From Massilia sp. YIM B02763 (GTDB lineage: Bacteria > Pseudomonadota > Gammaproteobacteria > Burkholderiales > Burkholderiaceae_D): a stretch of 64,000 nt of DNA. Below the pieces are notes generated by a model. The model was not told where the DNA came from and did not search any database. It worked only from the letters and a program-made list of their open reading frames with translations. A program made the translations under genes and the position numbers. Shown one piece after another: positions 48,200 through 63,036 of the stretch (positions within the stretch are counted from its first letter, which is position 1; every line of letters starts with the position of its first letter). The DNA lies in assembly GCF_030412015.1 (NCBI RefSeq), contig NZ_JASNRD010000018.1:1-64000 (forward strand), in the 5' to 3' direction.

Positions 48200-49903
48200 T
48201 TACTTCTTGGCGCTCTGCGGATTCAGGTTGGTCAGGCGGCCGCTCTCGGTGCCGGCCGTCTCGTCGATGACGGCATTGATCAGGGCGGGCTTGCCGGCCG
48301 CGATGGCTTCGCGCAGCGCACTGGCCAGTTCTTCCGGCGTGGTCGCGTGGTAGCCGATGCCGCCGAAGGCCTCGATCATCTTGTCGTAGCGGGCGTTCTT
48401 GACGAACACGGTGGGCGCCACGTCCTTGCCGCCGGTGGGATTGACGTCGGTGCCCTTGTACACGCCGTTGTTGTTGAAGACGATCGTCGTCACGGGCAAC
48501 TCGTAGCGGCAGATGGTTTCCAGCTCCATGCCGGAGAAGCCGAAGGCGCTGTCGCCTTCCACGGCCACCACCGGCTTGCCGCTGGTGACGGCCGCGCCGA
48601 TGGCATAGCCCATGCCGATGCCCATGATGCCCCAGGTGCCGGAATCGAAACGCTTGCGCGGCTGGTACTGGTCGATGATGCTGCGCGCATAGTCCAGCGT
48701 GTTGGCGCCCTCGTTGACGAGGTTGATGTCCGGATGGTCCTTCAGGACGTCTCGGATCGCGCGCAGCGCGCTGTGGAAATTCATCGGCACCGGATTCTTG
48801 TCCAGCAGCGCGGCCATCTTGGCCTGGTTCTGCTCCTTGCGCTGGGCGATGGCGCCGAGCCATTCCGCGTCGGGCTGCTCGATGCCGGCGGCGTCCAGCC
48901 CTTGCAGCAGCGCGGCCACGCAGGAACCGATGTCGCCCGCCAGCGGCGCGGCGATCGGCACGTTGCTGTCGAATTCCGTCGGCGCGATGTCGATCTGCAC
49001 GAACTGCTTCGGCTTGCCCCAGGTCTTGCCCTTGCCATGCGCCAGCAGCCAGTTCAGGCGCGCGCCGATCAGCACGACGACGTCGGCCTCGGCCAGCACG
49101 AAGGAGCGCGCCGCGGATGCCGACTGCGCATGGGTGTCCGGCAGCAGGCCCTTGGCCATCGACATCGGCAGGTAGGGAATGCCGGTGCGTTCGACCAGCG
49201 CCTGGATGTCGGCATCGGCCTGGGCGTAGGCGGCGCCCTTGCCCAGCAGGATCAGCGGCTTCTTCGCGCCCTTGATGAGGTCCAGCGCGCGCTGCACGGA
49301 GTCCGGCGCCGGCAACTGGCGCGGCACCGGATCGACGACCTTCACCAGCGAGCGCTTGCCGTGGCCAGCCTCGATCGTCTGCGCCAGCAGCTGGGCCGGC
49401 AGGTCGAGGTAGACGCCGCCCGGGCGGCCCGAGACGGCGGCGCGGATCGCGCGCGCCACGCCGGTGCCGATGTCCTCGGCCTTGTTGATGCGGTAGGCCG
49501 CCTTCGCGTACGGCTTGGCGGCGTTGAGCTGGTCCATCTCTTCGTAGTCGCCCTGCTGCAGGTCGACGATCTCGCGTTCGCTGGAGCCGGAAATCAGGAT
49601 CATGGGGAAGCAGTTGGTGGTGGCATTCGCCAGCGCCGTCAGGCCATTCAGGAAACCGGGCGCCGACACGGTCAGGCAGATGCCCGGCTTTTGCGTCATG
49701 AAGCCGGCGATGGCGGCGGCGTTACCCGCGTTCTGCTCGTGGCGGAAACCGATGAAGCGCATGCCTTCCGCCTGCGCCAGGCGGGCCAGGTCCGTGATCG
49801 GGATCCCGACCAGGCCGAAGATCGTGTCGATGTCGTTTTCCTTCAGGGCGTCGATCACCAGGTGGAAGCCATCGGTGACTTCTACCGATACGTTGTGTGT
49901 CAT
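48200..49903 (-). CDS. oxc: Oxalyl-CoA decarboxylase
   Basis: A 567-residue thiamine-diphosphate enzyme. Glu56, in [12 protein letters not shown], activates ThDP and has the same number as in O. formigenes. The ThDP/Mg motif is [22 protein letters not shown] to FNNNGVY in pieces. It converts oxalyl-CoA to formyl-CoA and CO2. GGAGAC precedes the ATG. A TATGAT -10 box at 50010-50015 stands 23 nt downstream of an FNR-like palindrome, giving a predicted 100-nt leader. Confidence 0.96.
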
Positions 49904-50009: not shown

Positions 50010-50015
50010 ATCATA
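50010..50015 (-). promoter_or_regulatory. -10 box of the oxc-frc promoter
   Basis: TATGAT on the minus strand, separated by 23 nt from the FNR-like site at 50039-50052. This is the spacing of class II FNR/CRP-activated promoters, in which the activator replaces the -35 element; indeed no -35 is seen. Confidence 0.6.
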
Positions 50016-50038: not shown

Positions 50039-50052
50039 TTGACCCCGGTCAA
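50039..50052. promoter_or_regulatory. FNR-like operator 1 (oxc / Crp-Fnr gene)
   Basis: TTGACC-CC-GGTCAA with perfect half-sites. It lies between oxc and the divergent Crp/Fnr-type regulator gene, 45 bp before the latter's start. Confidence 0.7.
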
Positions 50053-50096
50053 GATTCGCCAGATGATGTAGAGACTCCGACCATCGACCGGCCGCC

Positions 50097-50705
50097 ATGA
50101 CCCTCATTGCCAATCACCCGGAACGAAACATCATTCGCGTGCAGTTGAAGCAGAACGTCGTACTCAAGGAGTTGCGCGACAGCGAAATGGCCGCGCTCGA
50201 ACCCTATCTCACCATCACCAACCACCAGAAGGGCGACCTGCTGCTGAACCAGGGGGTCTACGAGATGGAGCAGTACTTCATCCTCGACGGCATCCTGAAG
50301 CGCCAGGTCACCAACCACGAGGCGAAGGAAATGATCCTGCGCTTCTCGTCGGAACGCGACATCGAGACCAGCTACGCCGCCTGGCGCCTCAAGACACCGA
50401 CGCCCTACAGCATCGTGTGCGTGACGAAGGCGCGCGTGGCCAGCATGCCGCTGACGCAATGGGTCGATTTCCTGCAGAGCCACAGCCTCGTGAAGGAAGC
50501 GTTCGAGTTCGAAGTGATGAGCCTGATGAGCGGCATCATGGCGCACACGATCACCTTGCACCTGCTCGACGCGCCGGGCCGCGTGCACCGCTTCATGCGC
50601 AAGCAGCCCGAGTTGTTCGAGCGCCTGCCGAAGAAGGAACTGGCGGCCTACCTGAACCTGTCTCCCGAAACCCTGAGCCGCCTGAAACACCAGGGAAAGA
50701 TCTGA
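50097..50705 (+). CDS. Crp/Fnr-family regulator, probable activator of oxalate genes
   Basis: A 202-residue protein. The cyclic-nucleotide-binding-like domain covers about 20-125, a long dimer helix 125-160 and the C-terminal HTH 165-202. The recognition helix reads SPETLSRLK; Glu191, Ser194 and Arg195 match the E-xx-SR pattern by which FNR reads TTGA half-sites. It has one cysteine (Cys108), so it cannot bind an FNR-type iron-sulfur cluster, and the signal must be something else. The gene is divergent from oxc. Three TTGAC-N4-RTYAA sites in this region are its predicted targets. Confidence 0.85.
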   Translation: MTLIANHPERNIIRVQLKQNVVLKELRDSEMAALEPYLTITNHQKGDLLLNQGVYEMEQYFILDGILKRQVTNHEAKEMILRFSSERDIETSYAAWRLKTPTPYSIVCVTKARVASMPLTQWVDFLQSHSLVKEAFEFEVMSLMSGIMAHTITLHLLDAPGRVHRFMRKQPELFERLPKKELAAYLNLSPETLSRLKHQGKI

Positions 50706-50765
50706 AAACAACGTTTTTTGCAGCGCCGCCACAGATTTTTTCTGCCTCTTTTTTGGGCGCTTTTT
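50706..50765 (+). terminator. T-rich region after the Crp/Fnr gene, possible terminator
   Basis: Three T5-T6 runs stand out in GC-rich surroundings. AGCGCC near 50718 can pair with GGCGCT just before TTTTTC at 50760-50765, but the loop is large, so intrinsic termination is uncertain. Confidence 0.4.
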
Positions 50766-50812
50766 CATAGCTAGACATTCATGCGTGGAATGTCCCGTAT
50801 CACGCCGTTCAA

Positions 50813-50841
50813 TTGGACGATGGACAGTCTGCCTTTACAAT
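50813..50841 (+). promoter_or_regulatory. Sigma-70 promoter of the small-protein gene
   Basis: A -35 TTGGAC (50813-50818), a 17-bp spacer and a -10 TACAAT (50836-50841). The predicted start is near 50848, giving a leader of about 37 nt with AAGGAG at 50871-50876. Confidence 0.7.
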
Positions 50842-50884
50842 CAAAGGCATACATCTTTTCGACCTTGAATAAGGAGTGGCAACC

Positions 50885-51031
50885 ATGAATGGCATGAGCG
50901 ACACCGCAACGCAACAAAACGGCGCATCTTTCTCCTTCGCAGCACTGATCGCCGCCCTGTTCCAGCTGAACCTGCGCGACAAGCTGAGCGCAGCCAACCG
51001 CGACGACGGCGCCCACACCTGGGGCCTGTAA
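50885..51031 (+). CDS. 48-residue small protein, unknown function
   Basis: A short gene encoding MNGMSDTATQQNGASFSFAA and then a hydrophobic helix (LIAALFQLN), ending DDGAHTWGL. It has its own near-consensus promoter, a perfect AAGGAG eight bases before the ATG, and an intrinsic terminator after the stop, so expression is very likely. The middle could form one amphipathic or membrane-associated helix. I know no family for it. It stands alone between the Crp/Fnr gene and the convergent reductase gene. Confidence 0.7.
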   Translation: MNGMSDTATQQNGASFSFAALIAALFQLNLRDKLSAANRDDGAHTWGL

Positions 51032-51094
51032 TTCCGCGGCTTGTCTTCCGGGAGCCGCACGACGAGGTTCCCGCAAGCGCCGCCCGCACGTCCG

Positions 51095-51133
51095 ACGCAC
51101 CGGCCGGGATCCCCCCGCCGGTGCGTTCTTTTT
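51095..51133. terminator. Intrinsic terminator after the small gene
   Basis: Stem ACGCACCGG(C)/(G)CCGGTGCGT with a GC-rich loop, followed by TCTTTTT. It ends at the stop codon of the convergent PanE-like gene and can serve both strands. Confidence 0.8.
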
Positions 51134-52148
51134 ACGCGGTCACCGCCTTCTGCAGGCGCACGCCGCCGCGTGCTTCCACCATTGTCTGTTCAAGCAATTT
51201 CACCAGCGCATAGGCCGAATCGATATGCGGGGTGGGCGTGCCGGTCATGCGCGCCAGCTCGATCACCGAGCCCACCAGGGCATCGATTTCCGGCCCGCGG
51301 CCCGCTTCCACATCCTGCAGCATCGACGTCTTGTGCTTGCCGATCTTCTCGGCCCCTGCGATGCGCCGCTCCAGGCTGACGCGGAAGGAAATGCCCAGCC
51401 GCGCCGCCACGCTTTCGGCCTCGCGCATCATGTCGGCCGCCAGGTCGCGCGCGAGCGGGTGCTGGCAGATGTCGACCAGCGTCGAATGCGCCAGCGCGCT
51501 GATCGGGTTGAACGACAGGTTGCCCCACAGCTTCAGCCAGATCTCGGCGCGGATGTCGTCCAGGATCGGCGACTTGAAGCCAGCCGCCTCGAACGCCGCC
51601 GTGACGCGCACGATCCGTTCGCTCGTGCTGCCGTCGAGCTCGCCCAACGGAAAGCGGTTGCCCTCGATATGGCGGATGACGCCGGGCGCGAGCAATTCCG
51701 CCGCCGGATAGACGACGCAACCGAGCACGCGCTCCGGCGGGATCAGGCGCGCCAGGTCGCCGCCCGGGTCCACGCTGTGCACGCTGCGTCCCTCGTACTC
51801 GCCGCCGTGGCGGTGGAAGTACCAGAACGGAATCCCGTTCTGCATCGTCACCACGACCGTGTCCGGCCCGAACAGCTTGCCCACGCGCGCTGCCACGTCC
51901 CCGACCTGGTGCGCCTTCACGGCCAGCACCACCACGTCCTGCACCCCTGCGGCATCGTAGTCGTCCGTGGCCTGCACTTGCGCCGCCACGCGTTCCGTTC
52001 CATCCGTCTCCACGAGCCGGATGCCGTGCGCGCGGATGGCTTGCAGGTTCGCCCCGCGCACGACGAAGGTCACCGTCTGCCCTGCCAGCGCGAGCCTCGC
52101 CCCGACGAGTCCGCCTATGGCGCCCGCCCCGATCACTGCGATCTTCAT
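51132..52148 (-). CDS. 2-dehydropantoate 2-reductase-like (ApbA/PanE) protein
   Basis: A 338-residue ketopantoate-reductase-fold protein. The NADPH motif GAGAIGG is at residues 7-13, the catalytic Lys lies in the C-terminal domain (EIWLKLWGNLSFNPISALA) and the C-terminal ApbA_C domain is present. Paralogs of PanE are common in catabolic operons and reduce other 2-oxo acids, so pantothenate synthesis is not implied here. It follows the fumarylacetoacetase-type gene by 17 bp on the minus strand. Confidence 0.82.
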   Translation of the reverse strand: MKIAVIGAGAIGGLVGARLALAGQTVTFVVRGANLQAIRAHGIRLVETDGTERVAAQVQATDDYDAAGVQDVVVLAVKAHQVGDVAARVGKLFGPDTVVVTMQNGIPFWYFHRHGGEYEGRSVHSVDPGGDLARLIPPERVLGCVVYPAAELLAPGVIRHIEGNRFPLGELDGSTSERIVRVTAAFEAAGFKSPILDDIRAEIWLKLWGNLSFNPISALAHSTLVDICQHPLARDLAADMMREAESVAARLGISFRVSLERRIAGAEKIGKHKTSMLQDVEAGRGPEIDALVGSVIELARMTGTPTPHIDSAYALVKLLEQTMVEARGGVRLQKAVTA

Positions 52149-52165
52149 GACACACCCCTTGATGG

Positions 52166-52933
52166 TTACTCGAAACGGTTGGTGAGCGTGCCGATGCCGT
52201 CGATCTCCACCTCGATCGTGCTGCCCGGGCGCATCGAGCCCACGCCGACCGACGTCCCGCACAGCAGGAGGTCGCCCGGCTCCAATGTCATGTCCTGCGA
52301 AATCATGCTGACCAGTTCGGCCACGCTGAACACCATGTCGTTGACCGGATAGTCCTGGCGTACCTCGCCGTTGAGGATGGTGCGCACGACCAGCATCGCC
52401 GGATTCAGCCCGGTGGCGATCACGGGCCCGAACGGGCAGAAGGTATCGAAGCCCTTGGCGCGCACCCATTGCGGGAAGGTCGGATCGCGCTGGATGATCT
52501 CGCCCACCGTCACGTCGTTCGCGCAGGTATAGCCGAAGATATGGTCGGGCGCGCTTTCCACCGTCACGCCGCTGCAGGTGCTGCCGATCACGATCGCCAG
52601 TTCGCCCTCGAAGGCCACCTTGGCATCGGTCCGCGGCTTGCGGATCGTGCCGCCCGGCGCCAGGAAGGACGTCGGCGGCTTCATCAGGTACAGGGGTTCG
52701 GGCGGCGGCGCCAGGCCGAGCTTCTTGCCCAGCGCATGAAAATTATTCCACATCGCCAGCACCTTGCCGGGAACGACGGGCGTGAGCACGGTGACGTCGG
52801 CCAGGTTGATCGCGATGTCGGTGCGGCTCGGGCCGTCGAACATGTCGCCCTTGAAGACCCGGATCTTGTCGCCATCGAGCGTGCCGAAGCGCACCGTGTC
52901 GAGATGCAGGAAGCGTATCCAGCGCTGGATCAT
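52166..52933 (-). CDS. Fumarylacetoacetate hydrolase family protein
   Basis: A 255-residue FAH-fold protein. Metal ligands are the acidic residues in FEGELAIVIG and GYTCANDVT, with KGFDTFCPFGPVI and GDLLLCGTSVGVG as further family segments. FAH-family enzymes hydrolyse or decarboxylate acylpyruvates and oxaloacetate. Given its neighbours, a C4 or C2 oxo acid is possible but unproven. It lies downstream of the oxalate antiporter gene, from which it is separated by a hairpin (52974-52996). Confidence 0.82.
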   Translation of the reverse strand: MIQRWIRFLHLDTVRFGTLDGDKIRVFKGDMFDGPSRTDIAINLADVTVLTPVVPGKVLAMWNNFHALGKKLGLAPPPEPLYLMKPPTSFLAPGGTIRKPRTDAKVAFEGELAIVIGSTCSGVTVESAPDHIFGYTCANDVTVGEIIQRDPTFPQWVRAKGFDTFCPFGPVIATGLNPAMLVVRTILNGEVRQDYPVNDMVFSVAELVSMISQDMTLEPGDLLLCGTSVGVGSMRPGSTIEVEIDGIGTLTNRFE

Positions 52934-52973
52934 GGGAAGCCTCTTTCAGGAGGATCGTCGTTCCGTGTGATAC

Positions 52974-52996
52974 GCGTGCGGCGGGACGCCGCACGC
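52974..52996. repeat. GC-rich hairpin between the antiporter and FAH genes
   Basis: A 10-bp perfect stem GCGTGCGGCG/CGCCGCACGC with a GGA loop and no T-run. It may act as a processing or attenuation signal that lowers expression of the downstream genes. Confidence 0.55.
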
Positions 52997-53012
52997 GCCA
53001 GGCGTATCGCCT

Positions 53013-54368
53013 TCAGTTGCTTGCCCGGGCTGCCGCGGTACCGCCGGCAGGGCTGCTGGTACCGGGCACGTAGTCGCCCTCGGCGGCGCTGACGATGCCG
53101 CTGGACTCCTCGATGAAGCGCTTGCGCATCGGCCGGAGTACCCACCATGCCATGATCGCCGCCACCGCGTTCATGCCGCAGCCGATGAAGAACACGGATT
53201 CCCAGCTGCCGCTGGCGGCCATGATCAGGCTGGAGATCGGCACGAAGATCGAGGCCGTGCCCTTCGCCGTGTACATCAGGCCCGCGTTGCCGGCGGCGTT
53301 GCGGGTGCCGAAGGTATCCGCCGTCGTGGCCGGGAACAGGCTGTAGATCTCGCCCCAGGCAAAGAACACGAGGCCGGTCAGGATGACGAACATGATCGGG
53401 TCGCGGCCGAAGTAGTACAGCGCGATGATGCCGACCGATTCCAGCGCGAAGGCGATGAACATCGTCTTCTCGCGGCCGATCTGGTCCGATACCCAGCCGA
53501 AGAACGGCCGCGTCAAGCCGTTCAGCACGCGGTCGATGGCCAGTGCGAAGGTCAGCGCCGGCAGCACCATGCCCATGACGTTGAAGCGGACGCCATCGAT
53601 CTCGAAGTCCTTGGCGATCGGGCCCATCTGCGCGGTAGCCATCAGGCCGCCGGCGGCGACCAGCACGAACATCACGTACATGACCCAGAATACGGGTTTG
53701 CGCACCATCTGCGACGGCGTGAAATCGGCCGTGGTCTGCAGCACGTTCGGGTTCTTCTTCTTGGCCGACTTGGCGGCCTGGTGCGGCGGCCGCACCATCA
53801 TGGCGGCCAGCAGCATCACGATCGCGCCCTGGCCGATGCCGAAGTAGAGGAAGGTATCGGCATAGCCGCTGCTTTCGATCATCTTCGAGATCGGGATGAT
53901 GGTGGCGGCCGAGCCGGCACCGAAGCCCGCAGCCGTCAGGCCGGCGGCCAGGCCGCGCCGGTCGGGGAACCATTTCAGTGCCGATCCCACGCAGGTGCCG
54001 TAGACCGCACCTGCGCCGATGCCGCTGATGGCCGCGGCGACGTACAGCACGAACAGCGTGGAAGCGAACGAATTCATCACCCAGCCGATCGCGCACAGCA
54101 GGCCGCCGAACAGCACCACGGGGCGCGGCCCCCATTTGTCGACGGCCCAGCCTTCGATCGGCACCAGCCACGTCTCGGTGAGGATGAAGATGGTGAACGC
54201 CACCTGGATGGCCGCCTTGGACCAGCCGTGGGCTTCCGACAGCGGATTGACGAACAGGGTCCAGCCGTACTGCAGGTTGGCGATCATGGCCATGCAGACG
54301 ATGCCCATGACGAGTTGGATCCAGCGGAACGATGCTGGTCTTTCGACTGCCAGTGTCTCGGTTTTCAT
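53013..54368 (-). CDS. oxlT: Oxalate:formate antiporter (OFA family MFS)
   Basis: A 451-residue, 12-helix MFS protein with the OFA signature NLQYGWTLFVNPL in helix 1-2. Arg287 (LTRPFFGW) and Lys369 (MYTAKGTA) correspond to the substrate-binding Arg272 and Lys355 of O. formigenes OxlT. It exchanges external oxalate for internal formate across the inner membrane. AGGAGA precedes the ATG. The predicted leader is about 260 nt and contains a small reading frame. Confidence 0.92.
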   Translation of the reverse strand: MKTETLAVERPASFRWIQLVMGIVCMAMIANLQYGWTLFVNPLSEAHGWSKAAIQVAFTIFILTETWLVPIEGWAVDKWGPRPVVLFGGLLCAIGWVMNSFASTLFVLYVAAAISGIGAGAVYGTCVGSALKWFPDRRGLAAGLTAAGFGAGSAATIIPISKMIESSGYADTFLYFGIGQGAIVMLLAAMMVRPPHQAAKSAKKKNPNVLQTTADFTPSQMVRKPVFWVMYVMFVLVAAGGLMATAQMGPIAKDFEIDGVRFNVMGMVLPALTFALAIDRVLNGLTRPFFGWVSDQIGREKTMFIAFALESVGIIALYYFGRDPIMFVILTGLVFFAWGEIYSLFPATTADTFGTRNAAGNAGLMYTAKGTASIFVPISSLIMAASGSWESVFFIGCGMNAVAAIMAWWVLRPMRKRFIEESSGIVSAAEGDYVPGTSSPAGGTAAARASN

Positions 54369-54414
54369 GCGATGTCTCCTGTGCTTTGGTTTTTATGCGC
54401 TGGAAGGTGTCGCT

Positions 54415-54516
54415 TCAGGTACGGTCTCCACGTCGTACCCGGCGGTCGTGCGCACCGGGCGGATCGGCTGCATGAAGGCGGGGGGCACTGGCATGGCGGT
54501 GCGCTGGGTTGCTCAT
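54415..54516 (-). CDS. Possible small leader reading frame, perhaps frameshifted
   Basis: ATG at 54516 has GGAG eight bases upstream and opens a 33-codon frame. After a run of six C, the third-position GC preference moves to another frame, which starts at ATG 54494 and ends with a TAA at 54393-54395. Removing one C would join both into a 40-residue protein containing MQPIRPVRTTAGYDVETVPE. No homologue is recalled. It may be a leader peptide, a broken gene or chance. Confidence 0.3.
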   Translation of the reverse strand: MSNPAHRHASAPRLHAADPPGAHDRRVRRGDRT

Positions 54517-54663
54517 GACCTTGTCTCCAGATAGGGGTTCACGAAAGCTACCGAAGGATTCTGGAACCGTTTTTTTTCGCGCCGCCGGTCGGGTCCGGCC
54601 TGGCGCCGCTTATGGAAAGTTCAACAGATGGGCCGATTGTGGAAGAACGGTTTTCGCATATCC

Positions 54664-54677
54664 TTGACCGCGGTTAA
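54664..54677. promoter_or_regulatory. FNR-like operator 2 (antiporter promoter)
   Basis: TTGACC-GC-GGTTAA, one mismatch to a perfect palindrome. It stands 22 nt upstream of the minus-strand -10 box CACAAT. Confidence 0.6.
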
Positions 54678-54708
54678 GTTTCGAAAATCTGGTCCCGGCC
54701 CGCGACGT

Positions 54709-55044
54709 TCAGACCCCGACCTGGTGCTGGCGCAGCGCGCGCCAGTCGATCGCGGCCGCCGGATTGCAACCGGGCGCCGTCAATTGCGGCACGCAGCGTT
54801 CCTTGGCCGCGAGGATCGCGTCGACGAGGAACTCGGCGTCGTAGGCCTTGAGCAGGTGGGACTGGTGCTGCGCCAGGTAGTCGCGCACGCAGTCGCGTTC
54901 TCCGTCCGCGCACGGCAGTTCGAAGGCCGCATCCCAGAACCAGTTCAGTCCCAGTTCGTGGAAGGCGGCGTTGTAGGCGTTGCGGCGCAGCTGCGCATCG
55001 GATCCTGCATGGATGTCGTTACCGCTGTCGATCAAGTTCGTCAT
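54709..55044 (-). CDS. Small conserved-looking protein, unknown function
   Basis: A 111-residue, probably helical, soluble protein without signal or membrane segment. It has cysteines in LPCADGERDCVRDYL and KERCVPQ, and reads HELGLNWFWDAAFE near the N-terminus. A good SD (GGAGAGAG) precedes the ATG. It is divergent from the LysR gene at 55168 and could be its target. I do not recognise the family. Confidence 0.65.
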   Translation of the reverse strand: MTNLIDSGNDIHAGSDAQLRRNAYNAAFHELGLNWFWDAAFELPCADGERDCVRDYLAQHQSHLLKAYDAEFLVDAILAAKERCVPQLTAPGCNPAAAIDWRALRQHQVGV

Positions 55045-55101
55045 GGCACTCTCTCTCCGGTCGTGTGTTCAACGGACTGCACATCGATACTAGGGGATTT
55101 A

Positions 55102-55140
55102 AATGATTAGAAAAATTTAAAGTTTTTAGGGATAATCATT
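55102..55140. promoter_or_regulatory. AT-rich divergent region with inverted repeat
   Basis: AATGATTA (55102-55109) and TAATCATT (55133-55140) are perfect reverse complements, 23 bp apart, in a strikingly AT-rich tract between the small gene and the LysR gene. A LysR-type dimer-of-dimers site is plausible. Confidence 0.5.
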
Positions 55141-55167
55141 AGGGATCGCTGATACATCGGAGCCGTG

Positions 55168-56094
55168 ATGAAGAACGCCACGCTGCGCCAGCTAAAAGTC
55201 TTCGAGGCAGTTGCTCGCCACCTCAGTTTCTCCCGCGCTGCAGCAGAACTGCACCTCACGCAGCCGGCCGTCTCGACCCAGATCCGCACGCTCGAAGGCC
55301 ATGTGGGGCTGGCGCTGTTCGAACAACTCGGGAAGAAGACCTACCTGACGCAGGCGGGCACGGAACTGCTGCAGTTCTCGCGCGCGATCATCCAGCAGTT
55401 CCACGAGGCCGACACGGCGATGGCGCAGCACCGCGGCATCGCCGGCGGCCAGCTGAACGTGGCCGTGATCAGCGCCGGCGATTATTTTTTCCCGCAGCTG
55501 ATGGTGGCGTTCGCGCGCCGCCATCCCGGCGTGCAGCTGAACCTGTCCGTGCACAACCGCGAGGAGCTGCTCGGCCAGATCGCGGAGAACCGCACGGACC
55601 TGGCCGTGATGGTGCGTCCGCCCGCGCAGGAGGACATGCACAGCGAGGCTTTCGCGCCGCACCCCTACGTGATCGTGTCCGCGCCGGACCACCCGCTGGC
55701 GGGACGCGCGCGCATCGGCATGGAGGAATTGCTGCGCCACCCTTTCGTGGTGCGCGAGCGCGGTTCGGATACCTGGCAGTCGATGGAGGACGCCTTCGGC
55801 GCGCACATGGACGGCATCCGCGTGGCGATGGCGATCCGCAGCACGGAGACGATCAAGCAGGCCGTCATCGCCGGCATCGGCCTGGGTTTCCTGTCGGCGC
55901 ACACGATCGGCCGCGAACTGGCGGACGGCAGCCTGGTGGTGCTGCCGGTGGACGGTTTTCCGCTGATGCTGCACTGGTACGTGGTGCACCGCCGCGAGAA
56001 ACGCCTGCCGCCGGTGGCGCGTGCCTTCCATGCCTTCCTGATGGAGGAAGGCGCGCAGCGCATCGCTGCGCTGATTCCCTCGGCCCACCACTGA
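55168..56094 (+). CDS. LysR-family regulator (CbbR-like subgroup)
   Basis: A 308-residue LysR-type regulator starting KNATLRQLKVFEAVARHLSF, with HTH to residue 62 and an effector domain whose sequence (NVAVISAGDYFFPQLMVAF) resembles the CbbR/YeiE group. The ATG at 55168 has GGAG five bases upstream; GTG at 55165 is also in frame. It is divergent from the 111-residue protein gene and lies between the oxalate and glyoxylate blocks. Confidence 0.82.
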   Translation: MKNATLRQLKVFEAVARHLSFSRAAAELHLTQPAVSTQIRTLEGHVGLALFEQLGKKTYLTQAGTELLQFSRAIIQQFHEADTAMAQHRGIAGGQLNVAVISAGDYFFPQLMVAFARRHPGVQLNLSVHNREELLGQIAENRTDLAVMVRPPAQEDMHSEAFAPHPYVIVSAPDHPLAGRARIGMEELLRHPFVVRERGSDTWQSMEDAFGAHMDGIRVAMAIRSTETIKQAVIAGIGLGFLSAHTIGRELADGSLVVLPVDGFPLMLHWYVVHRREKRLPPVARAFHAFLMEEGAQRIAALIPSAHH

Positions 56095-56131
56095 CGGCGC
56101 GCTGCGGCAGGCGCCCATCGCCAGGGCGGCA

Positions 56132-57064
56132 TCAATGGGCCATCAGCGCCTTCACGTGGGCCGCGCAGCCGCCGGCCAGCCCGGCGCCGCTGTAGCCGCC
56201 TTCCAGCACCGAAACGATGCGGCCGCCGCAGGCCGCGTCGGCGACCGCCATCACGCGTTCGGTAATCCAGCGGAAGTCCTCGTCTTCCAGCGCCATCTGC
56301 GCCAGCGGATCGAGACGGTGCGCATCGAAGCCGGCCGACACCAGGATCAGTTCGGGGCCGAACGCATGCAGCGCGGGCAGCAGCGCCTCCTCCACGCGCG
56401 CGCGGAACAGGGCCGATGCGCAGCCGGGCGGCAAGGGCACGTTGACGATGTTGCCGCCGCTGCCCCGTTCCGTCGCCGCGCCGGTGCCCGGATACAGCGG
56501 CGACTGGTGGGTCGAGCCGAAGAACAGTTCGGGGCGGTGATGGAAGGCCGCCTGCGTGCCGTTGCCATGATGGACATCGAAGTCGACGACGGCGACGCGC
56601 GCCAGGCCGTGCCCTTCCAGCGCGTGCAGGGCGGCGACGGCGACCTGGTTGAAGATGCAGAACCCCATCGCCCGCCCAGGCTCCGCATGGTGGCCGCAGG
56701 GACGCGTGGCGCAGAAGACATTGCGCGCCTCGCCGGCCAGCACGGCGTCCACGCCAGCGCAGGCGGCGCCCACGCACGCCATCACGGCCTCCCACGAACC
56801 GGGCGACATCATCGTGTCCCCGCCATCCAGCATGACGAGGCCGGCTTGCGGCGCCAGTGCGGCGATCTCGTCGACATAGGCGGCGTCGTGCACGCGCAGC
56901 AGCTGTTCGCGCGTGCCCGGCGGCGCCTGGCGCCACTGCAGCTGCTCGAATCCGGGCCCGCGCAGCGCCGCCAGCACGGCATGCAGGCGCTGCGGCGACT
57001 CGGGGTGGGAAGGACCCGGCCGGTGCTCGAAGCACGCCGGGTGGGACAGTACCAGCGTTCCCAT
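56132..57064 (-). CDS. Histone-deacetylase-family (acetylpolyamine amidohydrolase-like) protein
   Basis: A 310-residue zinc hydrolase of the arginase/deacetylase fold. Active-site motifs are RPCGHHAEP, VDFDVHHGNGTQ (zinc Asp/His), SAGFDAHRLDPL and the C-terminal LEGGYS. Bacterial members deacetylate polyamines or other small amides. It follows the tartronate semialdehyde reductase gene with 10 bp between and so appears to be the last gene of the gcl operon. Confidence 0.87.
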   Translation of the reverse strand: MGTLVLSHPACFEHRPGPSHPESPQRLHAVLAALRGPGFEQLQWRQAPPGTREQLLRVHDAAYVDEIAALAPQAGLVMLDGGDTMMSPGSWEAVMACVGAACAGVDAVLAGEARNVFCATRPCGHHAEPGRAMGFCIFNQVAVAALHALEGHGLARVAVVDFDVHHGNGTQAAFHHRPELFFGSTHQSPLYPGTGAATERGSGGNIVNVPLPPGCASALFRARVEEALLPALHAFGPELILVSAGFDAHRLDPLAQMALEDEDFRWITERVMAVADAACGGRIVSVLEGGYSGAGLAGGCAAHVKALMAH

Positions 57065-57074
57065 GGCGATCGCT

Positions 57075-57971
57075 TCAGTCCACCGCGCCGGCCGCGATCG
57101 GGTGGTTGGACATGCGCTCGATCGCCTGGCACAGCGCGGAATGATCCAGTTGCGCGAGCCCGTGCGCGGCGCAGGAATTCATCAGCTCCTGGACGACGGC
57201 CGTATTCGGCAGCGATACGCCCAGGCTCTTCGCGCCCTGCAGCGCCAGGTTCAGGTCCTTCTGGTGCAGCGCAATGCGAAAGCCCGGTGCGAACGTGCGC
57301 TTGACCATGCGCTCGCCATGCACCTCGAGGATGCGCGACGCGGCGAAGCCGCCCATCAGCGCCTCGCGCACCCTGGCCGGGTCGGCGCCCGCCTTCGACG
57401 CGAACAGCAACGCCTCCGACACCGCCTGGATCGTCAGCGCGACGATGATCTGGTTCGCCACCTTGGCCGTCTGGCCGTCGCCGTTGCCGCCCACCAGCGT
57501 GATGTTCTTGCCCATCATCCGGAACAGCGGCAGCACCCGCTCGAACGCTTCCTGCGATCCGCCCGCCATGATCGTCAGCGTGGCCGCCTTGGCGCCCACT
57601 TCGCCGCCCGACACGGGCGCATCGAGATAGTCGCAGTCGCGCTTGTTGATCCGCTTGGCGAATTCCTTGGTCGCCAGCGGAGAAATCGAACTCATGTCGA
57701 CGACGATCTTGCCGGGGCTGAGCGCCGCGGCGACACCGTTCTCGCCGAACAGCACCTCCTCCACCTGCGGCGTGTCCGGCACCATGACGATGACGATGTC
57801 GGCGCGCTTGGCGACCTCGCCCGCATTCGTGCACACGGTGGCGCCGCCCTCCACCAGCGCCAGCGGCGGGTTCTTCACGTCGTGCAGGTACAGCTTGCAG
57901 CCGCCCGCCTGCAGGTGGCCGGCCATGGGGCCGCCCATGATGCCCAGGCCGATGAATCCTACTTTGGTCAT
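57075..57971 (-). CDS. glxR: Tartronate semialdehyde (2-hydroxy-3-oxopropionate) reductase
   Basis: A 298-residue beta-hydroxyacid dehydrogenase. The NAD motif GFIGLGIMGGPMAGHL is at the N-terminus, DAPVSGGEVGA is the substrate loop, and the catalytic Lys is in GQTAKVANQ. It reduces tartronate semialdehyde to D-glycerate. AAAGGAGAC precedes the ATG. Downstream of gcl and hyi on the same strand. Confidence 0.93.
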   Translation of the reverse strand: MTKVGFIGLGIMGGPMAGHLQAGGCKLYLHDVKNPPLALVEGGATVCTNAGEVAKRADIVIVMVPDTPQVEEVLFGENGVAAALSPGKIVVDMSSISPLATKEFAKRINKRDCDYLDAPVSGGEVGAKAATLTIMAGGSQEAFERVLPLFRMMGKNITLVGGNGDGQTAKVANQIIVALTIQAVSEALLFASKAGADPARVREALMGGFAASRILEVHGERMVKRTFAPGFRIALHQKDLNLALQGAKSLGVSLPNTAVVQELMNSCAAHGLAQLDHSALCQAIERMSNHPIAAGAVD

Positions 57972-58010
57972 GATGGTCTCCTTTTCTTGTCGAGAATTAC
58001 TGCGCCAGGA

Positions 58011-58820
58011 TTAATGCGCAACGCTCGCTTCGCCATGACTGGTCAGGGCGCCGTGCCGGGCCAGCCAGTCCAGGCCGTCGTAGGTCGTGGTGCGCGGCTT
58101 GTATTCGCAACCGATCCAGCCCGTGTAGCCGAGGCGGTCCAGGCGGTCGAACAGGTAGCGGTAATTGATCTCCCCGGTGCCGGGTTCGTTGCGGCCCGGG
58201 TTGTCGGCCAGCTGGATGTGGCGGATCATCGGCAGGTTGGCGGACATGGTGGCGGCCAGTTCTCCCTCCATGCGCTGCATGTGGTAGATGTCGTACTGCA
58301 GGAACAGGTTGTCCGATCCCGTCTCGGCGATCAGGTCCAGCGCCTGGCGCGTGCCGTGCAGGAAGAAGCCGGGGATGTCGAAGGTGTTGATCGGCTCGAC
58401 CAGCAGCGCGATGCCCTCGTCCTTCAGACGGCGCGCCGCGAACGCCAGGTTCGCCACCAGCACGTCGTGGGCCCGGGCCCGCTCGACGCCCGGCGGCACG
58501 ATGCCGGCCAGGCAGTTCAGCTGCTTTACGCCCAGCGCCTTGGCATAGGCGATCGCGCTCGCCACGCCCTGCTCGAACTCGCCGCGCCGGCCCGGGTGGC
58601 AAGCGATGCCGCGCTCGCCGCCGGCCCAGTCGCCGGCCGGCAGGTTGTGCAGCACCAGCTCCAGGCCGTGCGCATCGAGCCGCTCGGCGATCTGCGCGGC
58701 CGGGTAGGCGTAGGGGAACAGGAACTCGACACCCCCGAAGCCCGCTTGCGCGGCCTTCTCGAAACGGTCGAGGAAATCGAATTCGGTAAACAGCATCGTC
58801 AGGTTGGCGGCCAGTTTCAT
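58011..58820 (-). CDS. hyi: Hydroxypyruvate isomerase
   Basis: A 269-residue TIM-barrel isomerase. Conserved segments are ANLTMLFTEFDFLDRF, GVEFLFPYAY, LLVEPINTFDIPGFFL (metal-binding Glu) and GEINYRYLFDRL to YTGWIGCEYKP. It interconverts hydroxypyruvate and tartronate semialdehyde. It lies 10 bp after gcl. Confidence 0.93.
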   Translation of the reverse strand: MKLAANLTMLFTEFDFLDRFEKAAQAGFGGVEFLFPYAYPAAQIAERLDAHGLELVLHNLPAGDWAGGERGIACHPGRRGEFEQGVASAIAYAKALGVKQLNCLAGIVPPGVERARAHDVLVANLAFAARRLKDEGIALLVEPINTFDIPGFFLHGTRQALDLIAETGSDNLFLQYDIYHMQRMEGELAATMSANLPMIRHIQLADNPGRNEPGTGEINYRYLFDRLDRLGYTGWIGCEYKPRTTTYDGLDWLARHGALTSHGEASVAH

Positions 58821-58830
58821 GTCGTCGTCC

Positions 58831-60573
<1,743 letters not shown>

Positions 60574-60658
60574 CATTCCTCCGGCGGGATGGTTGTGCGA
60601 ATCGATGAGCCCATGCTAGGACGGGGCGGCGCGTTTGATAAGGCCACAAAAAATCCGT

Positions 60659-60685
60659 GTATTCGATACCTGGGGTATGGAATAC
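60659..60685. promoter_or_regulatory. Palindromic operator between gcl and its LysR gene
   Basis: GTATTCGATACC (60659-60670), TGG, GGTATGGAATAC (60674-60685): inverted repeat with one mismatched pair out of 12. It lies 86 bp before gcl and 40 bp before the LysR start, the expected place for a LysR operator. Confidence 0.65.
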
Positions 60686-60724
60686 TGGGCACTCATCGGG
60701 ACGGTTCCACTGAGACAGGCGCCT

Positions 60725-61639
60725 ATGGACAAGATCAAGGAGATGACCGCCTTCGTCGACGCCGTCGACCAAGGCAGCCTGGCGCGCGCGGCGCTGGCCC
60801 AGCACGTCACGCCCGTGATGCTGGGACGCCGCATCGACGCGCTGGAGCGCAGGCTGGGCGTGAAGCTGCTGCACCGGACCACGCGCCACCTCACGCTGAC
60901 GGAAGCGGGAACGCTATTCCTGGAACATTGCCGCAAGCTGCTGTCGGACCTGGACCTGGCCGAGACCATCGTCTCCGAAGGACGCGGCGAGGCGAGCGGC
61001 CACCTGATCGTGTCGGCACCGGCCGCATTCGGGCGGCTGCACGTGGCGCCGCATGCGCCGCCCTTCCTGGCCGCGCATCCGAAGGTGCGCATCTCGTTCA
61101 ACCTCACCGACCAGGTCGTGGACCTCGTGCGCGAAGGCTACGAGCTCGGCATCCGCATCGGCGGCGCGCTCGATCCGAGTTCCGTCGCGGTACGCCTCGC
61201 GTCGAACCGCCGCGTCGTGTGCGGCACGCCCGCCTACTTCGCGCGCTGCGGCGTCCCGCGCACGCTGGACGACCTGGCGCAGCACAACTGCCTCGCCTTC
61301 AACCTGCAGGGCGGACAGCAGCGCGGCTGGTATTTTCAAAAGGACGGCAAGCCCGTCACCATCAAGGTCGGCGGCAACCTCGATTGCAACGACGGCGAAC
61401 TGCTGCACCGCTGGGTAAGCGAGGGACTGGGCCTGGCATGGCGCTCGACCTGGGAGATCCAGGCCCAGCTGGCGGCAGGGGAATTGATGACGGTGCTGGA
61501 CGACTACGCGCTGCCCGACTACGACATCATGGCCGTCTACATGCAGCAGCGGCACCTGCCGGCGCGCGTGCGCGCCTTCATCGATACCTTGAAGGCGACC
61601 TATGCGCAGCCGGGGTACTGGACTCGAAGCACCCCTTAG
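60725..61639 (+). CDS. LysR-family regulator, probable regulator of the gcl operon
   Basis: A 304-residue LysR-type regulator with the HTH at residues 5-64 (GSLARAALAQHVTPVMLGRR; slightly atypical recognition helix) and effector domain from about 93 (LIVSAPAAFGRLHVAPHAP). DmlR-like subgroup. It is divergent from gcl with a strong palindrome between them. An upstream in-frame start at 60635 would read through the operator and is rejected. Confidence 0.83.
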   Translation: MDKIKEMTAFVDAVDQGSLARAALAQHVTPVMLGRRIDALERRLGVKLLHRTTRHLTLTEAGTLFLEHCRKLLSDLDLAETIVSEGRGEASGHLIVSAPAAFGRLHVAPHAPPFLAAHPKVRISFNLTDQVVDLVREGYELGIRIGGALDPSSVAVRLASNRRVVCGTPAYFARCGVPRTLDDLAQHNCLAFNLQGGQQRGWYFQKDGKPVTIKVGGNLDCNDGELLHRWVSEGLGLAWRSTWEIQAQLAAGELMTVLDDYALPDYDIMAVYMQQRHLPARVRAFIDTLKATYAQPGYWTRSTP

Positions 61640-61645
61640 TCCGTA

Positions 61646-61682
61646 GGATGGGCGCGGCCGGCGCAGGCACCACGTGCCCACC
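61646..61682. repeat. GGATGGGC-type palindromic repeat, copy 5
   Basis: A 37-bp unit, 35 of 37 identical to copy 1 at 33-69. It sits between the convergent LysR and second frc genes. Confidence 0.75.
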
Positions 61683-61687
61683 GAACG

Positions 61688-62935
61688 TCAAATCACCCGC
61701 TCGGCGCGCAGCGCCGCGATCTGCAGCGGCGTATAGCCCAGCTGCGACAGCACCTCGTCCGTGTGTTCTCCCAGCAGCGGCGAGCGGCGCACCTCGGTCG
61801 GGCTGTCGGACAGCTTGATCGGATTGCCCACCGTGAGATAGCTGCCCCGTTCCGGATGCTCGACCTCGACGATGGTGCCGGTGGCGCGCAGCGACGGTTC
61901 CTCGGCGATCTCCTTCATCGACAGGATCGGGCCGCAAGGGATGTCGTACTGGTTCAGCACATCCATCACGTCGAACTTGGTGTGCTGCTTCGTCCACTCC
62001 TCGACCGTGGCGAAGATCTCCATCAGGCGCGGCAGGCGCGCGCGCGGCGTGGCGAAGTCCGGGTGCGCAATCCACTCCTCGCGCCCGATCACCTTGCAGA
62101 TCGCCGGCCACACGGCCGCCTGCGCGATGAAATAGATGTAGGCGTTGGGATCGTCTTCCCAGCCCCGGCACTTGAGGATCCAGCCCGGCTGGCCGCCGCC
62201 GGACGCGTTGCCGGCGCGCGGCACGGACGTGCCGAAGCTGCCTTCCGGGTATTGTGGATATTCCTCCATCACGCCCGTGCGTTCGAGGCGCTGCTGGTCG
62301 CGCAGCTTGACGCGGCACAGGTTCAGCACGGCATCCTGCATCGCCGTCAGCACGCGCTGGCCGCGGCCCGTGCTCGTGCGCTGGTACAGCGCGGTAACGA
62401 TGCCCAGGGCGAGATGCAGGCCGCTGCCGCTGTCGCCGATCTGGGCGCCCGTCACCACGGGCGGGCCGTCGTCGAAGCCGGTGGTGGAGGCGGAGCCGCC
62501 CGTGCACTGGGCGACGTTCTCGTACACCTTGCAGTGTTCGTAGGGGCCGGGGCCGAAACCCTTCACGGAGGCGACGATCATGCGCGGGTTCAGCTGCTGG
62601 ATGCGCTCCCAGGTAAAGCCCATGCGGTCCAGCGCGCCCGGCGCGAAGTTCTCGACCAGCACGTCGCAGTCGCGGATCAGCGTCTCCAGCACCTCCTTGC
62701 CGGCCGGGTGCTTGGCGTCGAGCGTGATCGAGCGCTTGTTGTGGTTGAGCATCGTGAAGTACAGGCTGTCCACGCCGGGAATGTCGCGCAGTTGGGCGCG
62801 CGTGGCGTCGCCCTCGCCGGCGCGCTCGACCTTGATGACGTCGGCGCCGAACCAGGCCAGCAGCTGGGTACACGTGGGGCCCGACTGGACGTGGGTGAAA
62901 TCGAGAACGCGAACGCCTTCCAGTGCCTTGCTCAT
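61688..62935 (-). CDS. Formyl-CoA:oxalate CoA-transferase, second copy
   Basis: A 415-residue class III CoA-transferase, clearly paralogous to the frc product at 46835. It has Gln17 and catalytic Asp168 (IGDSGSG); the glycine loop is SGGGQPGW instead of GGGGQPGW. That change, in the loop that opens and closes over the active site, may alter kinetics or acceptor acid. GAGGAGAC precedes the ATG. The gene has its own FNR-like site and -10 box. Confidence 0.9.
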
Positions 62936-62993
62936 GCCCGTCTCCTCGGATGTTTTATGCGTACTCGGCAGCGGGGCGCGCCGGTGCCGGGCC

Positions 62994-62999
62994 ATCTTA
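62994..62999 (-). promoter_or_regulatory. -10 box of the second frc promoter
   Basis: TAAGAT on the minus strand, 23 nt from the FNR-like site at 63023-63036, the same spacing as at oxc. Predicted leader about 52 nt. Confidence 0.55.
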
Positions 63000-63022
63000 T
63001 CGAAACAATCACGAATCACCAC

Positions 63023-63036
63023 TTGACCGCGATCAA
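63023..63036. promoter_or_regulatory. FNR-like operator 3 (second frc promoter)
   Basis: TTGAC-CGCG-ATCAA. It shares with sites 1 and 2 the half-site TTGACC and the flanking AAG-TT on the upstream side of the minus-strand promoter. Confidence 0.65.

What the first reader, a model, noticed from the sequence alone, without database searches (positions are those of the whole stretch)
50039..63036. A predicted oxalate regulon: one Crp/Fnr-type regulator and three matching promoters
Three palindromes of the form TTGAC-N4-RTYAA occur at 50039-50052, 54664-54677 and 63023-63036. They lie ahead of exactly the three oxalate transcription units (oxc-frc, the oxalate:formate antiporter, the second frc). 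In each, the space to a minus-strand -10 box (TATGAT, CACAAT, TAAGAT) is 23, 22 and 23 nt, as in class II FNR promoters. The Crp/Fnr gene at 50097 shares site 1, and its recognition helix has the E-xx-SR pattern (Glu191, Ser194, Arg195) that reads TTGA. It lacks the cysteines for an Fe-S cluster, so it likely senses something other than oxygen directly, perhaps oxalyl-CoA, formate or another ligand. Such control of oxalate use is, as far as I know, not described.
Basis: partly seen in the sequence, partly recalled or inferred. Interest (0 to 1): 0.75.

Follow-up and report, generated by a model that had tools for sequence, protein, structure and literature searches.

The report
Conserved regulator of bacterial oxalate breakdown
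A small DNA-binding protein encoded beside the oxalate-degrading genes probably switches those genes on through a short palindromic DNA box, and the same protein-and-box pairing recurs in many related bacteria, including the gut oxalate eater Oxalobacter formigenes.

Summary
Confirmed, and the reading holds far beyond the window. The three palindromes are its only good matches (24.3, 21.0, 18.2 bits; next 3.5), each 22 or 23 nt before a -10 box. The adjacent Crp/Fnr-type gene (REG here) occurs in 68 of 294 family genomes; frc is in 65 of 68 REG+ against 7 of 226 REG- genomes, oxc in 52 of 68 against 5 of 226. The box lies upstream of oxc in 97 of 98 distinct promoters and of REG in 110 of 111, rarely upstream of neighbouring genes (0-3% for seven, 15% for one). 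A TATGAT-like -10 follows at 22/23 nt, as in class II activation. Where REG and oxc are not divergent neighbours, the box stays with oxc (12 of 12 pairs; REG 9 of 12). REG lacks Fe-S cysteines, CRP's cAMP contacts and a wing. O. formigenes has four boxes at 24-bp steps. Boxes elsewhere precede TctCBA and formate-metabolism genes. Against exclusivity: five oxc genomes lack REG yet keep a box (one a variant). Binding, ligand and direction of control are untested; ten paper searches listed no such regulator.

The parts
50097..50705 (+). REG, short Crp/Fnr-type regulator (202 aa + stop), proposed activator of the oxalate genes
   Evidence: PF00027 28.4 bits over cut-off 27.5; 28 orthologues, E191/S194/R195 invariant; best model mean pLDDT 90.4
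50039..50052 (.). Box 1, TTGACCCCGGTCAA, shared by the divergent oxc and REG promoters
   Evidence: PWM 24.3 bits, best in the window; 108 divergent REG/oxc pairs among the fetched loci, some genomes fetched twice
50010..50015 (-). -10 box TATGAT of the oxc promoter, 23 nt after box 1
   Evidence: sequence; -10 score peak at 23 nt across oxc promoters
50062..50067 (+). weak -10 (GATGAT) of REG, 17 bp from TTGACC of box 1, so box 1 would supply REG's own -35
   Evidence: sequence; xA...T at this offset in 70 of 107 REG promoters
48200..49903 (-). oxc, oxalyl-CoA decarboxylase, first gene of unit 1
   Evidence: TIGR03254 993 bits, cut-off 739.4
46835..48085 (-). frc, formyl-CoA transferase, second gene of unit 1
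   Evidence: TIGR03253 731 bits, cut-off 504.2
54664..54677 (.). Box 2 (TTAACCGCGGTCAA read toward OFA)
   Evidence: PWM 18.2; the TTAACC half-site recurs in OFA promoters of relatives
54636..54641 (-). -10 box CACAAT of the OFA promoter, 22 nt after box 2
   Evidence: sequence; mean -10 score peaks at 22 nt in 11 nonredundant OFA promoters, only 1 of 11 over 4 bits
53013..54368 (-). OFA, oxalate/formate antiporter, first gene of unit 2
   Evidence: TIGR04259 627 bits, cut-off 335
52166..52933 (-). fumarylacetoacetate-hydrolase-family gene, probably in the OFA unit
   Evidence: PF01557 198.5 bits; same strand, 79-bp gap after OFA
51132..52154 (-). PanE/ApbA-type reductase, probable oxalyl-CoA reductase, probably in the OFA unit (start codon at 52154 is my choice; the longest ORF starts at 52469)
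   Evidence: NF005089 469 bits; ApbA2 beside frc-oxc of C. necator acts as CoA-acylating glyoxylate dehydrogenase (PMC7486775, passages)
63023..63036 (.). Box 3 (TTGATCGCGGTCAA read toward frc2)
   Evidence: PWM 21.0
62994..62999 (-). -10 box TAAGAT of the frc2 promoter, 23 nt after box 3
   Evidence: sequence; over 4 bits at 23 nt in 18 of 18 nonredundant frc2 promoters that have a box
61688..62938 (-). frc2, second formyl-CoA transferase, unit 3 (start at 62938 or shortly downstream)
   Evidence: TIGR03253 721 bits

Best explanation
REG is a dedicated Crp/Fnr-family transcription factor of oxalate catabolism. As a dimer it binds TTGACC-N2-GGTCAA. Bound with its centre about 41.5 to 42.5 nt before the transcription start (if the -10 begins at -12), 22 or 23 nt ahead of a TATGAT-like -10, it recruits RNA polymerase at promoters without a good -35: oxc-frc, the antiporter unit and frc2. 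So it acts as a class II activator. At its own divergent promoter the same box supplies the -35 hexamer (TTGACC, 17 bp from a weak -10), so binding there should repress REG. Shown: the box, its conservation and spacing, co-occurrence and linkage with REG, the fold and the recognition-helix residues. Inferred: that REG binds this box, dimer binding, activation, autorepression, and gating by a pathway ligand (oxalate, oxalyl-CoA or formyl-CoA) rather than by oxygen or cAMP.
For: Window PWM 24.3/21.0/18.2 against a next best of 3.5. Box within 400 bp upstream: oxc 97 of 98, REG 110 of 111, OFA 25 of 43, frc2 28 of 82; controls KPR 1 of 41, GCL 0 of 11, HYI 0 of 17, TSR 0 of 17, LYSR1 1 of 30, LYSR2 0 of 12, PBP 0 of 3; shuffles at most 1.8%. 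-10 score above 4 bits at 23 nt in 27 of 47 nonredundant oxc promoters and at 22 nt in 11, against 0 or 1 at the 33 other offsets; frc2 18 of 18 at 23 nt. No oxc promoter of 105 matches TTGACA at 5 or 6 of 6 positions at a 16-18-bp spacer. frc in 65 of 68 REG+ against 7 of 226 REG- genomes, oxc 52 of 68 against 5 of 226. Box upstream of REG in 78 of 80 named loci, any oxalate gene in 78 of 80; an oxalate-type gene in the locus in 19 of 20 order-level loci. Box stays with oxc in 12 of 12 rearranged or distant pairs, with REG in 9 of 12. E191-xx-S194-R195 invariant, aligned to CRP ETVGR. REG -10 at a 17-bp spacer in 70 of 107.
Against: No binding or expression data. G006, G124, G137 and G158 have oxc and the box but no REG; in G124, G137 and G158 no cNMP-binding protein and no Crp-type HTH over cut-off was found. 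G275 has oxc, no REG and a variant box. The tight box occurs in 105 of 226 REG- genomes (62 of 68 REG+; hand count), so it is not private to REG. The genome has a cysteine-bearing FNR (L023). In L450, L451 and L453 REG has no box, so autorepression is not universal, and the L453 oxc box is weak (9.7 bits). A partial -35 (4 of 6 matches) is seen in 29 of 105 oxc promoters, more often than in random sequence (7.6%), so the promoters are not strictly without a -35. Box upstream of FAH in 6 of 41 and of frc in 6 of 88; 18 of 43 OFA and 54 of 82 frc2 upstream regions have none.
Confidence: 0.84

Rival explanations
1. The boxes are targets of the global oxygen regulator FNR (or another TTGAT-reading Crp/Fnr protein); REG is a passenger gene linked to oxc.
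For: The genome encodes a cysteine-bearing FNR (L023). The box resembles the FNR box (consensus recalled). G006 keeps the box; REG was not found there, and a cNMP-binding protein with a Crp-type HTH over cut-off was. The tight box also occurs in 105 of 226 REG- genomes.
Against: Positions 5-6 and 9-10 are CC and GG in 110 of 135 best oxc boxes (some genomes counted twice), whereas FNR prefers T at position 5 (recalled). REG is the divergent neighbour of oxc in 108 pairs. G020 (frc, no REG) has no box in its fetched 9 kb.
Confidence: 0.08
2. REG is chiefly a repressor: the box blocks oxc transcription and a ligand releases it.
For: The box overlaps REG's own -35, so REG may repress there.
Against: For oxc and frc2 the box lies 22/23 nt before the -10 and does not cover it; the gap is held in 38 of 47 nonredundant oxc promoters (27 at 23 nt, 11 at 22) and 18 of 18 frc2 promoters with a box, the spacing of a class II activator; a repressor would tolerate more positions (inference).
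Confidence: 0.06
3. The palindromes are inherited sequence without a role for REG (linkage and common descent of an oxalate island).
For: REG and oxc travel together, so linkage alone could keep the intergenic region.
Against: Flanks have diverged (mostly 0.3 bits or less) while most box positions carry 1.5-2.0 bits. Boxes recur at unlinked oxc, OFA, frc2, TctC and formate genes.
Confidence: 0.02

Closest known systems
FNR (oxygen-sensing Fe-S activator)
   Same: fold; E-xx-SR recognition helix and TTGA palindrome (FNR features recalled); class II spacing
   Different: no conserved cysteine; CC/GG at box positions 5-6 and 9-10; no wing; linked to oxalate genes
E. coli CRP
   Same: fold, alignment over query residues 35-195, E and R of the recognition helix
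   Different: residues at cAMP contacts differ: E72->S/T/A, R82->T/A, S83->P (S in 3 of 28), T127->I/V, S128->M (alignment, columns; contacts recalled); different box
3dn7 cyclic-nucleotide-binding regulatory protein, Cytophaga hutchinsonii
   Same: closest solved sequence (2.3e-13), 194 aa, alignment reaches residue 190
   Different: 16-17% identity in the structural match; its function is not given
DNR protein, Pseudomonas aeruginosa
   Same: second-best solved relative (5.2e-07)
   Different: NO response and haem (recalled) not testable here; no link to oxalate known to me
EvgA control of yfdXWUVE (E. coli oxalate/acid-resistance operon; PMC6128205, passages)
   Different: EvgA is a response regulator (recalled), a different protein family; another bacterial order
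frc-oxc and apbA2 of Cupriavidus necator (PMC7486775, passages)
   Same: frc-oxc operon with a PanE-like reductase nearby; its deletion abolishes growth on oxalate
   Different: no regulator of the operon in the 12 of 22 places shown

Membership tests
Crp/Fnr superfamily | N-terminal cyclic-nucleotide-binding (jelly-roll) domain | tested here: met
   PF00027 28.4 bits, cut-off 27.5; fold matches CRP/GlxR/FNR
Crp/Fnr superfamily | C-terminal helix-turn-helix with E..(S/G)R recognition helix | tested here: met
   E191, S194, R195 invariant in 28 of 28; aligned with CRP ETVGR
Crp/Fnr superfamily (typical members) | beta wing after the recognition helix (recalled) | tested here: not met
   the stop follows directly in 27 of 28 orthologues, in one after 5 more residues; last helix 190-198, no strand after it
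FNR subfamily | cysteines ligating a [4Fe-4S] cluster | tested here: not met
   no invariant cysteine in 28 orthologues; highest column 13 of 28
FNR subfamily | box TTGAT-N4-ATCAA (recalled) | tested here: not met
   CC..GG at positions 5-6/9-10 in 110 of 135 best oxc boxes
CRP (cAMP-dependent) | cAMP contacts E72, R82, S83, T127, S128 (recalled) | tested here: not met
   aligned residues S/T/A, T/A, P (S in 3 of 28), I/V, M; cAMP binding itself not tested
Class II activator promoters | activator box centred near -41.5, about 22 nt before the -10 | tested here: met
   peak at 22/23 nt in oxc, OFA and frc2 promoters; transcription starts not mapped
DNR-type haem sensors | haem binding and NO response | not testable with these tools
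   H150 in 28 of 28, H7 and H155 in 27 of 28; no functional meaning shown

The most novel reading that the evidence does not exclude
REG founds a wingless Crp/Fnr subfamily that directly senses an intermediate of the oxalate pathway (oxalate, oxalyl-CoA or formyl-CoA). Across the Burkholderiales it controls a complete regulon from uptake (antiporter or, elsewhere, TctCBA) through oxc/frc to formate oxidation or assimilation. In Oxalobacter formigenes a four-box array at 24-bp steps makes oxc a strong, cooperatively controlled promoter.
Probability: 0.45. Interest if true: 0.7.

Novelty: new member of a known kind. Interest (0 to 1): 0.58.

Why it matters
Oxalate degradation matters for kidney-stone risk (lack of O. 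formigenes is called a risk factor in the abstract of PMC4764995) and for soil carbon. The searches named in the report listed no dedicated transcription factor for it in this group. A defined regulator and a 14-bp box make control of oxc directly testable, could serve as an oxalate biosensor if REG is ligand-gated, and act as an annotation tool: boxes point to a TctCBA transporter as a candidate oxalate importer in Herminiimonas-like genomes and tie formate dehydrogenase and formate-THF ligase to oxalate use.

Tried and rejected
The loose pattern alone was rejected as a regulon test: 17 of its 20 genomic places lie outside the oxalate locus. A plasmid search for REG gave only proteins under 60% identity (15 records). 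Genome-level presence of the tight box was rejected as a diagnostic (105 of 226 REG- genomes have it). A profile search for REG in the REG-less Oxalobacter-like genomes found none. The REG slot of G143 read in one frame gave only a low-complexity frame with stops and was not pursued. Of 546 site-strand rows with a box of 14 bits or more and an ORF downstream, 190 fall before ORFs with no assigned gene, 82 of them with a -10 score above 0; several of those ORFs look like spurious antisense frames. The 24-bp step of the O. formigenes array has no explanation yet. cAMP as ligand was set aside because CRP's contacts are not conserved.

Papers: none was read whole. Passages by term search: PMC4764995, PMC9476978, PMC7190790, PMC7486775, PMC8305402, PMC6128205. 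Term search without a hit: PMC12927642, PMC10192776, PMC3886118. All others only as search listings, of which searches showed 20 of 119, 20 of 43 and 20 of 22 papers.
Full report
Observation. TTGACNNNNRTYAA occurs at three places in the window (mean 0.19 expected, 0 of 100 shuffles reach the 4 strand matches). Read on the minus strand, each is followed by a -10-like hexamer at the stated gap: TATGAT (23 nt), CACAAT (22) and TAAGAT (23). Downstream lie oxc-frc, an oxalate/formate antiporter and a second frc, all over the NCBIfam cut-offs. A position-weight matrix was built from 118 boxes upstream of oxc in the fetched loci; the window, its nearest relative (loci L150 and L309) and loci L203-L228 (mainly the Oxalobacter-like genomes) were left out, and some genomes are in twice. 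It scores the three places 24.3, 21.0 and 18.2; the next best 14-mer in 64 kb scores 3.5. The nearest named relative of REG is a Massilia MAG at 98%.

Whole genome. The loose pattern has 20 places in the 5.9-Mb assembly. By the matrix the oxalate boxes rank 1, 2 and 5 of the 20; the two between (19.0 and 18.3) overlap long ORFs and have no -10 above 1 bit at 22/23 nt, while the oxalate boxes have 6.5, 4.8 and 3.2 bits. Only two other places have a -10 above 4 bits there (L002, L003), both within 10 kb of the FNR gene, so they look like ordinary FNR promoters. Places outside the loose pattern were not scanned.

Co-occurrence. In 294 genomes of the family REG is found in 68 (one, G143, only as a 30%-identical relic with a stop), oxc in 57 at E 1e-200 or better, frc in 72 at 1e-100 or better. 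From the lists: oxc in 52 of 68 REG+ and 5 of 226 REG- genomes; frc in 65 of 68 and 7 of 226. In 399 genomes of the order REG is in 76, in 30 of 158 genera, 14 families by my count. I fetched loci of 20 of these 76 genomes, one to three per family: 19 of 20 hold oxc, an frc-like gene (52-84% identical to frc) or an oxc-like TPP gene in the same locus, adjacent to REG or, in L440 and L441, 4 to 5 kb away (L454 has none), and 14 of 20 have a box within 250 bp upstream of REG. Of 360 relatives in named genomes the best 80 were kept: 78 of 80 have the box within 250 bp upstream of REG (misses: L327, with 22 bp of upstream sequence, and L320), 63 have oxc, 67 frc, and 78 any of oxc, frc or OFA in the locus (misses: L355 and L379, short contigs).

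Promoters. Counting distinct upstream regions of up to 400 bp (genes hit within 12 residues of their start and at least 150 bp of upstream sequence; others dropped; the family and named sets overlap and were merged by exact sequence only), the box is found for REG in 110 of 111, oxc 97 of 98, OFA 25 of 43, frc2 28 of 82, frc 6 of 88 (usually the gene after oxc), the oxc-like TPP gene 9 of 9; for other genes of the same loci: KPR 1 of 41, FAH 6 of 41, GCL 0 of 11, HYI 0 of 17, TSR 0 of 17, LYSR1 1 of 30, LYSR2 0 of 12, PBP 0 of 3; dinucleotide shuffles at most 1.8%. After reduction below 75% identity, the -10 score exceeds 4 bits at 23 nt in 27 of 47 oxc promoters and at 22 nt in 11, against 0 or 1 at the other offsets from 5 to 39; frc2 has 18 of 18 at 23 nt; OFA peaks at 22 nt in mean score, with 1 of 11 above 4 bits. 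Of the 14 box positions in oxc promoters the 12 outer ones carry 1.5-2.0 bits and the two centre bases 0.1-0.2; most flanking positions carry 0.3 or less, with an A-tract just upstream. At a 16-18-bp spacer from that -10, 0 of 105 oxc promoters match TTGACA at 5 or 6 positions, 29 match 4 (28%, against 7.6% in random sequence): the -35 is poor, not absent.

Rearrangements. In the fetched loci 108 REG/oxc pairs are divergent neighbours. In the 12 others (11 loci; co-directional or distant) the best box before oxc scores 9.7 to 24.3 bits in 12 of 12, and before REG 13.9 or more in 9 of 12. The three without it before REG (L450, L451, L453) have it before oxc only (18.3, 19.5 and a weak 9.7 bits). 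So the box belongs to oxc first. Toward REG, an xA...T hexamer 9 nt after the box, i.e. 17 bp from its TTGACC, is present in 70 of 107 promoters (of 115; those with the gene too close or too little sequence were dropped) against at most 32 at any other offset, suggesting that the box doubles as REG's -35 and that REG represses itself. That step is inference.

Protein. REG is 202 aa; an AlphaFold2 model from 28 orthologues has mean pLDDT 90.4 (the five models range from 62.4 to 90.4) and matches CRP, GlxR, FNR and the short Cytophaga protein 3dn7. E191, S194 and R195 are invariant, the pattern that reads TTGA in FNR (recalled). CRP's cAMP contacts are replaced, no cysteine is conserved, and the chain ends four residues after the last helix, the stop following directly in 27 of 28 (one has 5 more residues), without a wing. 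Whether REG senses oxalate, oxalyl-CoA, formyl-CoA or formate is unknown.

Oxalobacter formigenes. The oxc product of genome G073 matches PDB 2c31 over residues 1-560 with no mismatch that I can see in the printed alignment (that 2c31 comes from O. formigenes is recalled). Its oxc promoter, and that of G049 of the same genus, carry four boxes at exact 24-bp steps. REG promoters in this genus and in g41 carry two boxes 38-40 bp apart in 10 of 12 loci scored.

Extended regulon. Boxes away from the core genes, with a -10 score above 0 at 22/23 nt (often only about 1 bit), precede a cluster of 30 similar ORFs whose one examined member is the TctC receptor of a TctCBA transporter (L168; some of the 30 are one genome fetched twice); four similar ORFs of which L176 was examined, a fused NuoE/NuoF-type subunit followed by a formate dehydrogenase alpha subunit (TIGR01591, 781 bits) and FdhD; and formate-tetrahydrofolate ligase in two loci, both searched, with TATAGT at 23 nt.

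Against the reading. G006, G124, G137 and G158 have oxc and the box but no REG; in G124, G137 and G158 neither a cyclic-nucleotide-binding protein nor a Crp-type HTH over cut-off was found. G275 has oxc, no REG and a variant box. Some other protein may read the box there, or the drafts (87-99% complete) may lack it. The tight box also occurs in 105 of 226 REG- genomes against 62 of 68 REG+ (hand count).

Novelty. Ten searches of the open-access library (three of them capped at 20 rows) listed no paper on a Crp/Fnr regulator of oxalate genes. The O. formigenes proteome paper mentions neither Crp nor Fnr in its main text (PMC4764995). In E. coli the yfdXWUVE operon is under EvgA (PMC6128205, passages); in Paraburkholderia phymatum oxc and frc were not changed in nodules of a nifA mutant (PMC8305402, passage). 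Most subscription journals are absent from that library, so absence is not proof. I rate it a new member of a known kind (Crp/Fnr) with a clear, testable and apparently undescribed regulon.

Noticed in passing
L221:2309-2394 and L222:2642-2727: Four palindromes at exact 24-bp steps before oxc in O. formigenes (G073) and in G049 of the same genus; 24 bp is not a whole number of helix turns.
   Followed up: partly
L168:1759-5195 and similar loci: A box precedes a TctCBA tripartite transporter (cluster of 30 similar ORFs, one examined), a candidate oxalate importer.
   Followed up: partly
L458:847-7738; L460:3503-5291; L461:2007-3770: Boxes precede a formate dehydrogenase operon with FdhD (L458) and formate-THF ligase (L460, L461), linking formate use to the regulon.
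   Followed up: partly
L173:7193-8809, L184:6123-7754: In Collimonas-like and some other genomes a TPP enzyme only 27% identical to OXC takes the oxc position under the same box; best NCBIfam model an acetolactate synthase, below its cut-off.
   Followed up: partly
L226, L227, L228 (G137, G158, G124), L220 (G006): oxc with the box but without REG.
   Followed up: partly
L229:6046-6059 (G275): frc-oxc operon without REG, with a variant box TTGACGTGGATCAA about 90 bp upstream.
   Followed up: no
L218:3628-4164 (G143): The REG position next to a box holds only a 30%-identical relic with a stop.
   Followed up: no
window 54709-55044 (-): 111-aa ORF upstream of box 2 with no Pfam or NCBIfam match.
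   Followed up: no
window 57075-60576 (-): Glyoxylate module inside the oxalate island (glyoxylate carboligase; the two following genes read as hyi and tsr from sequence only) without a box of its own.
   Followed up: no
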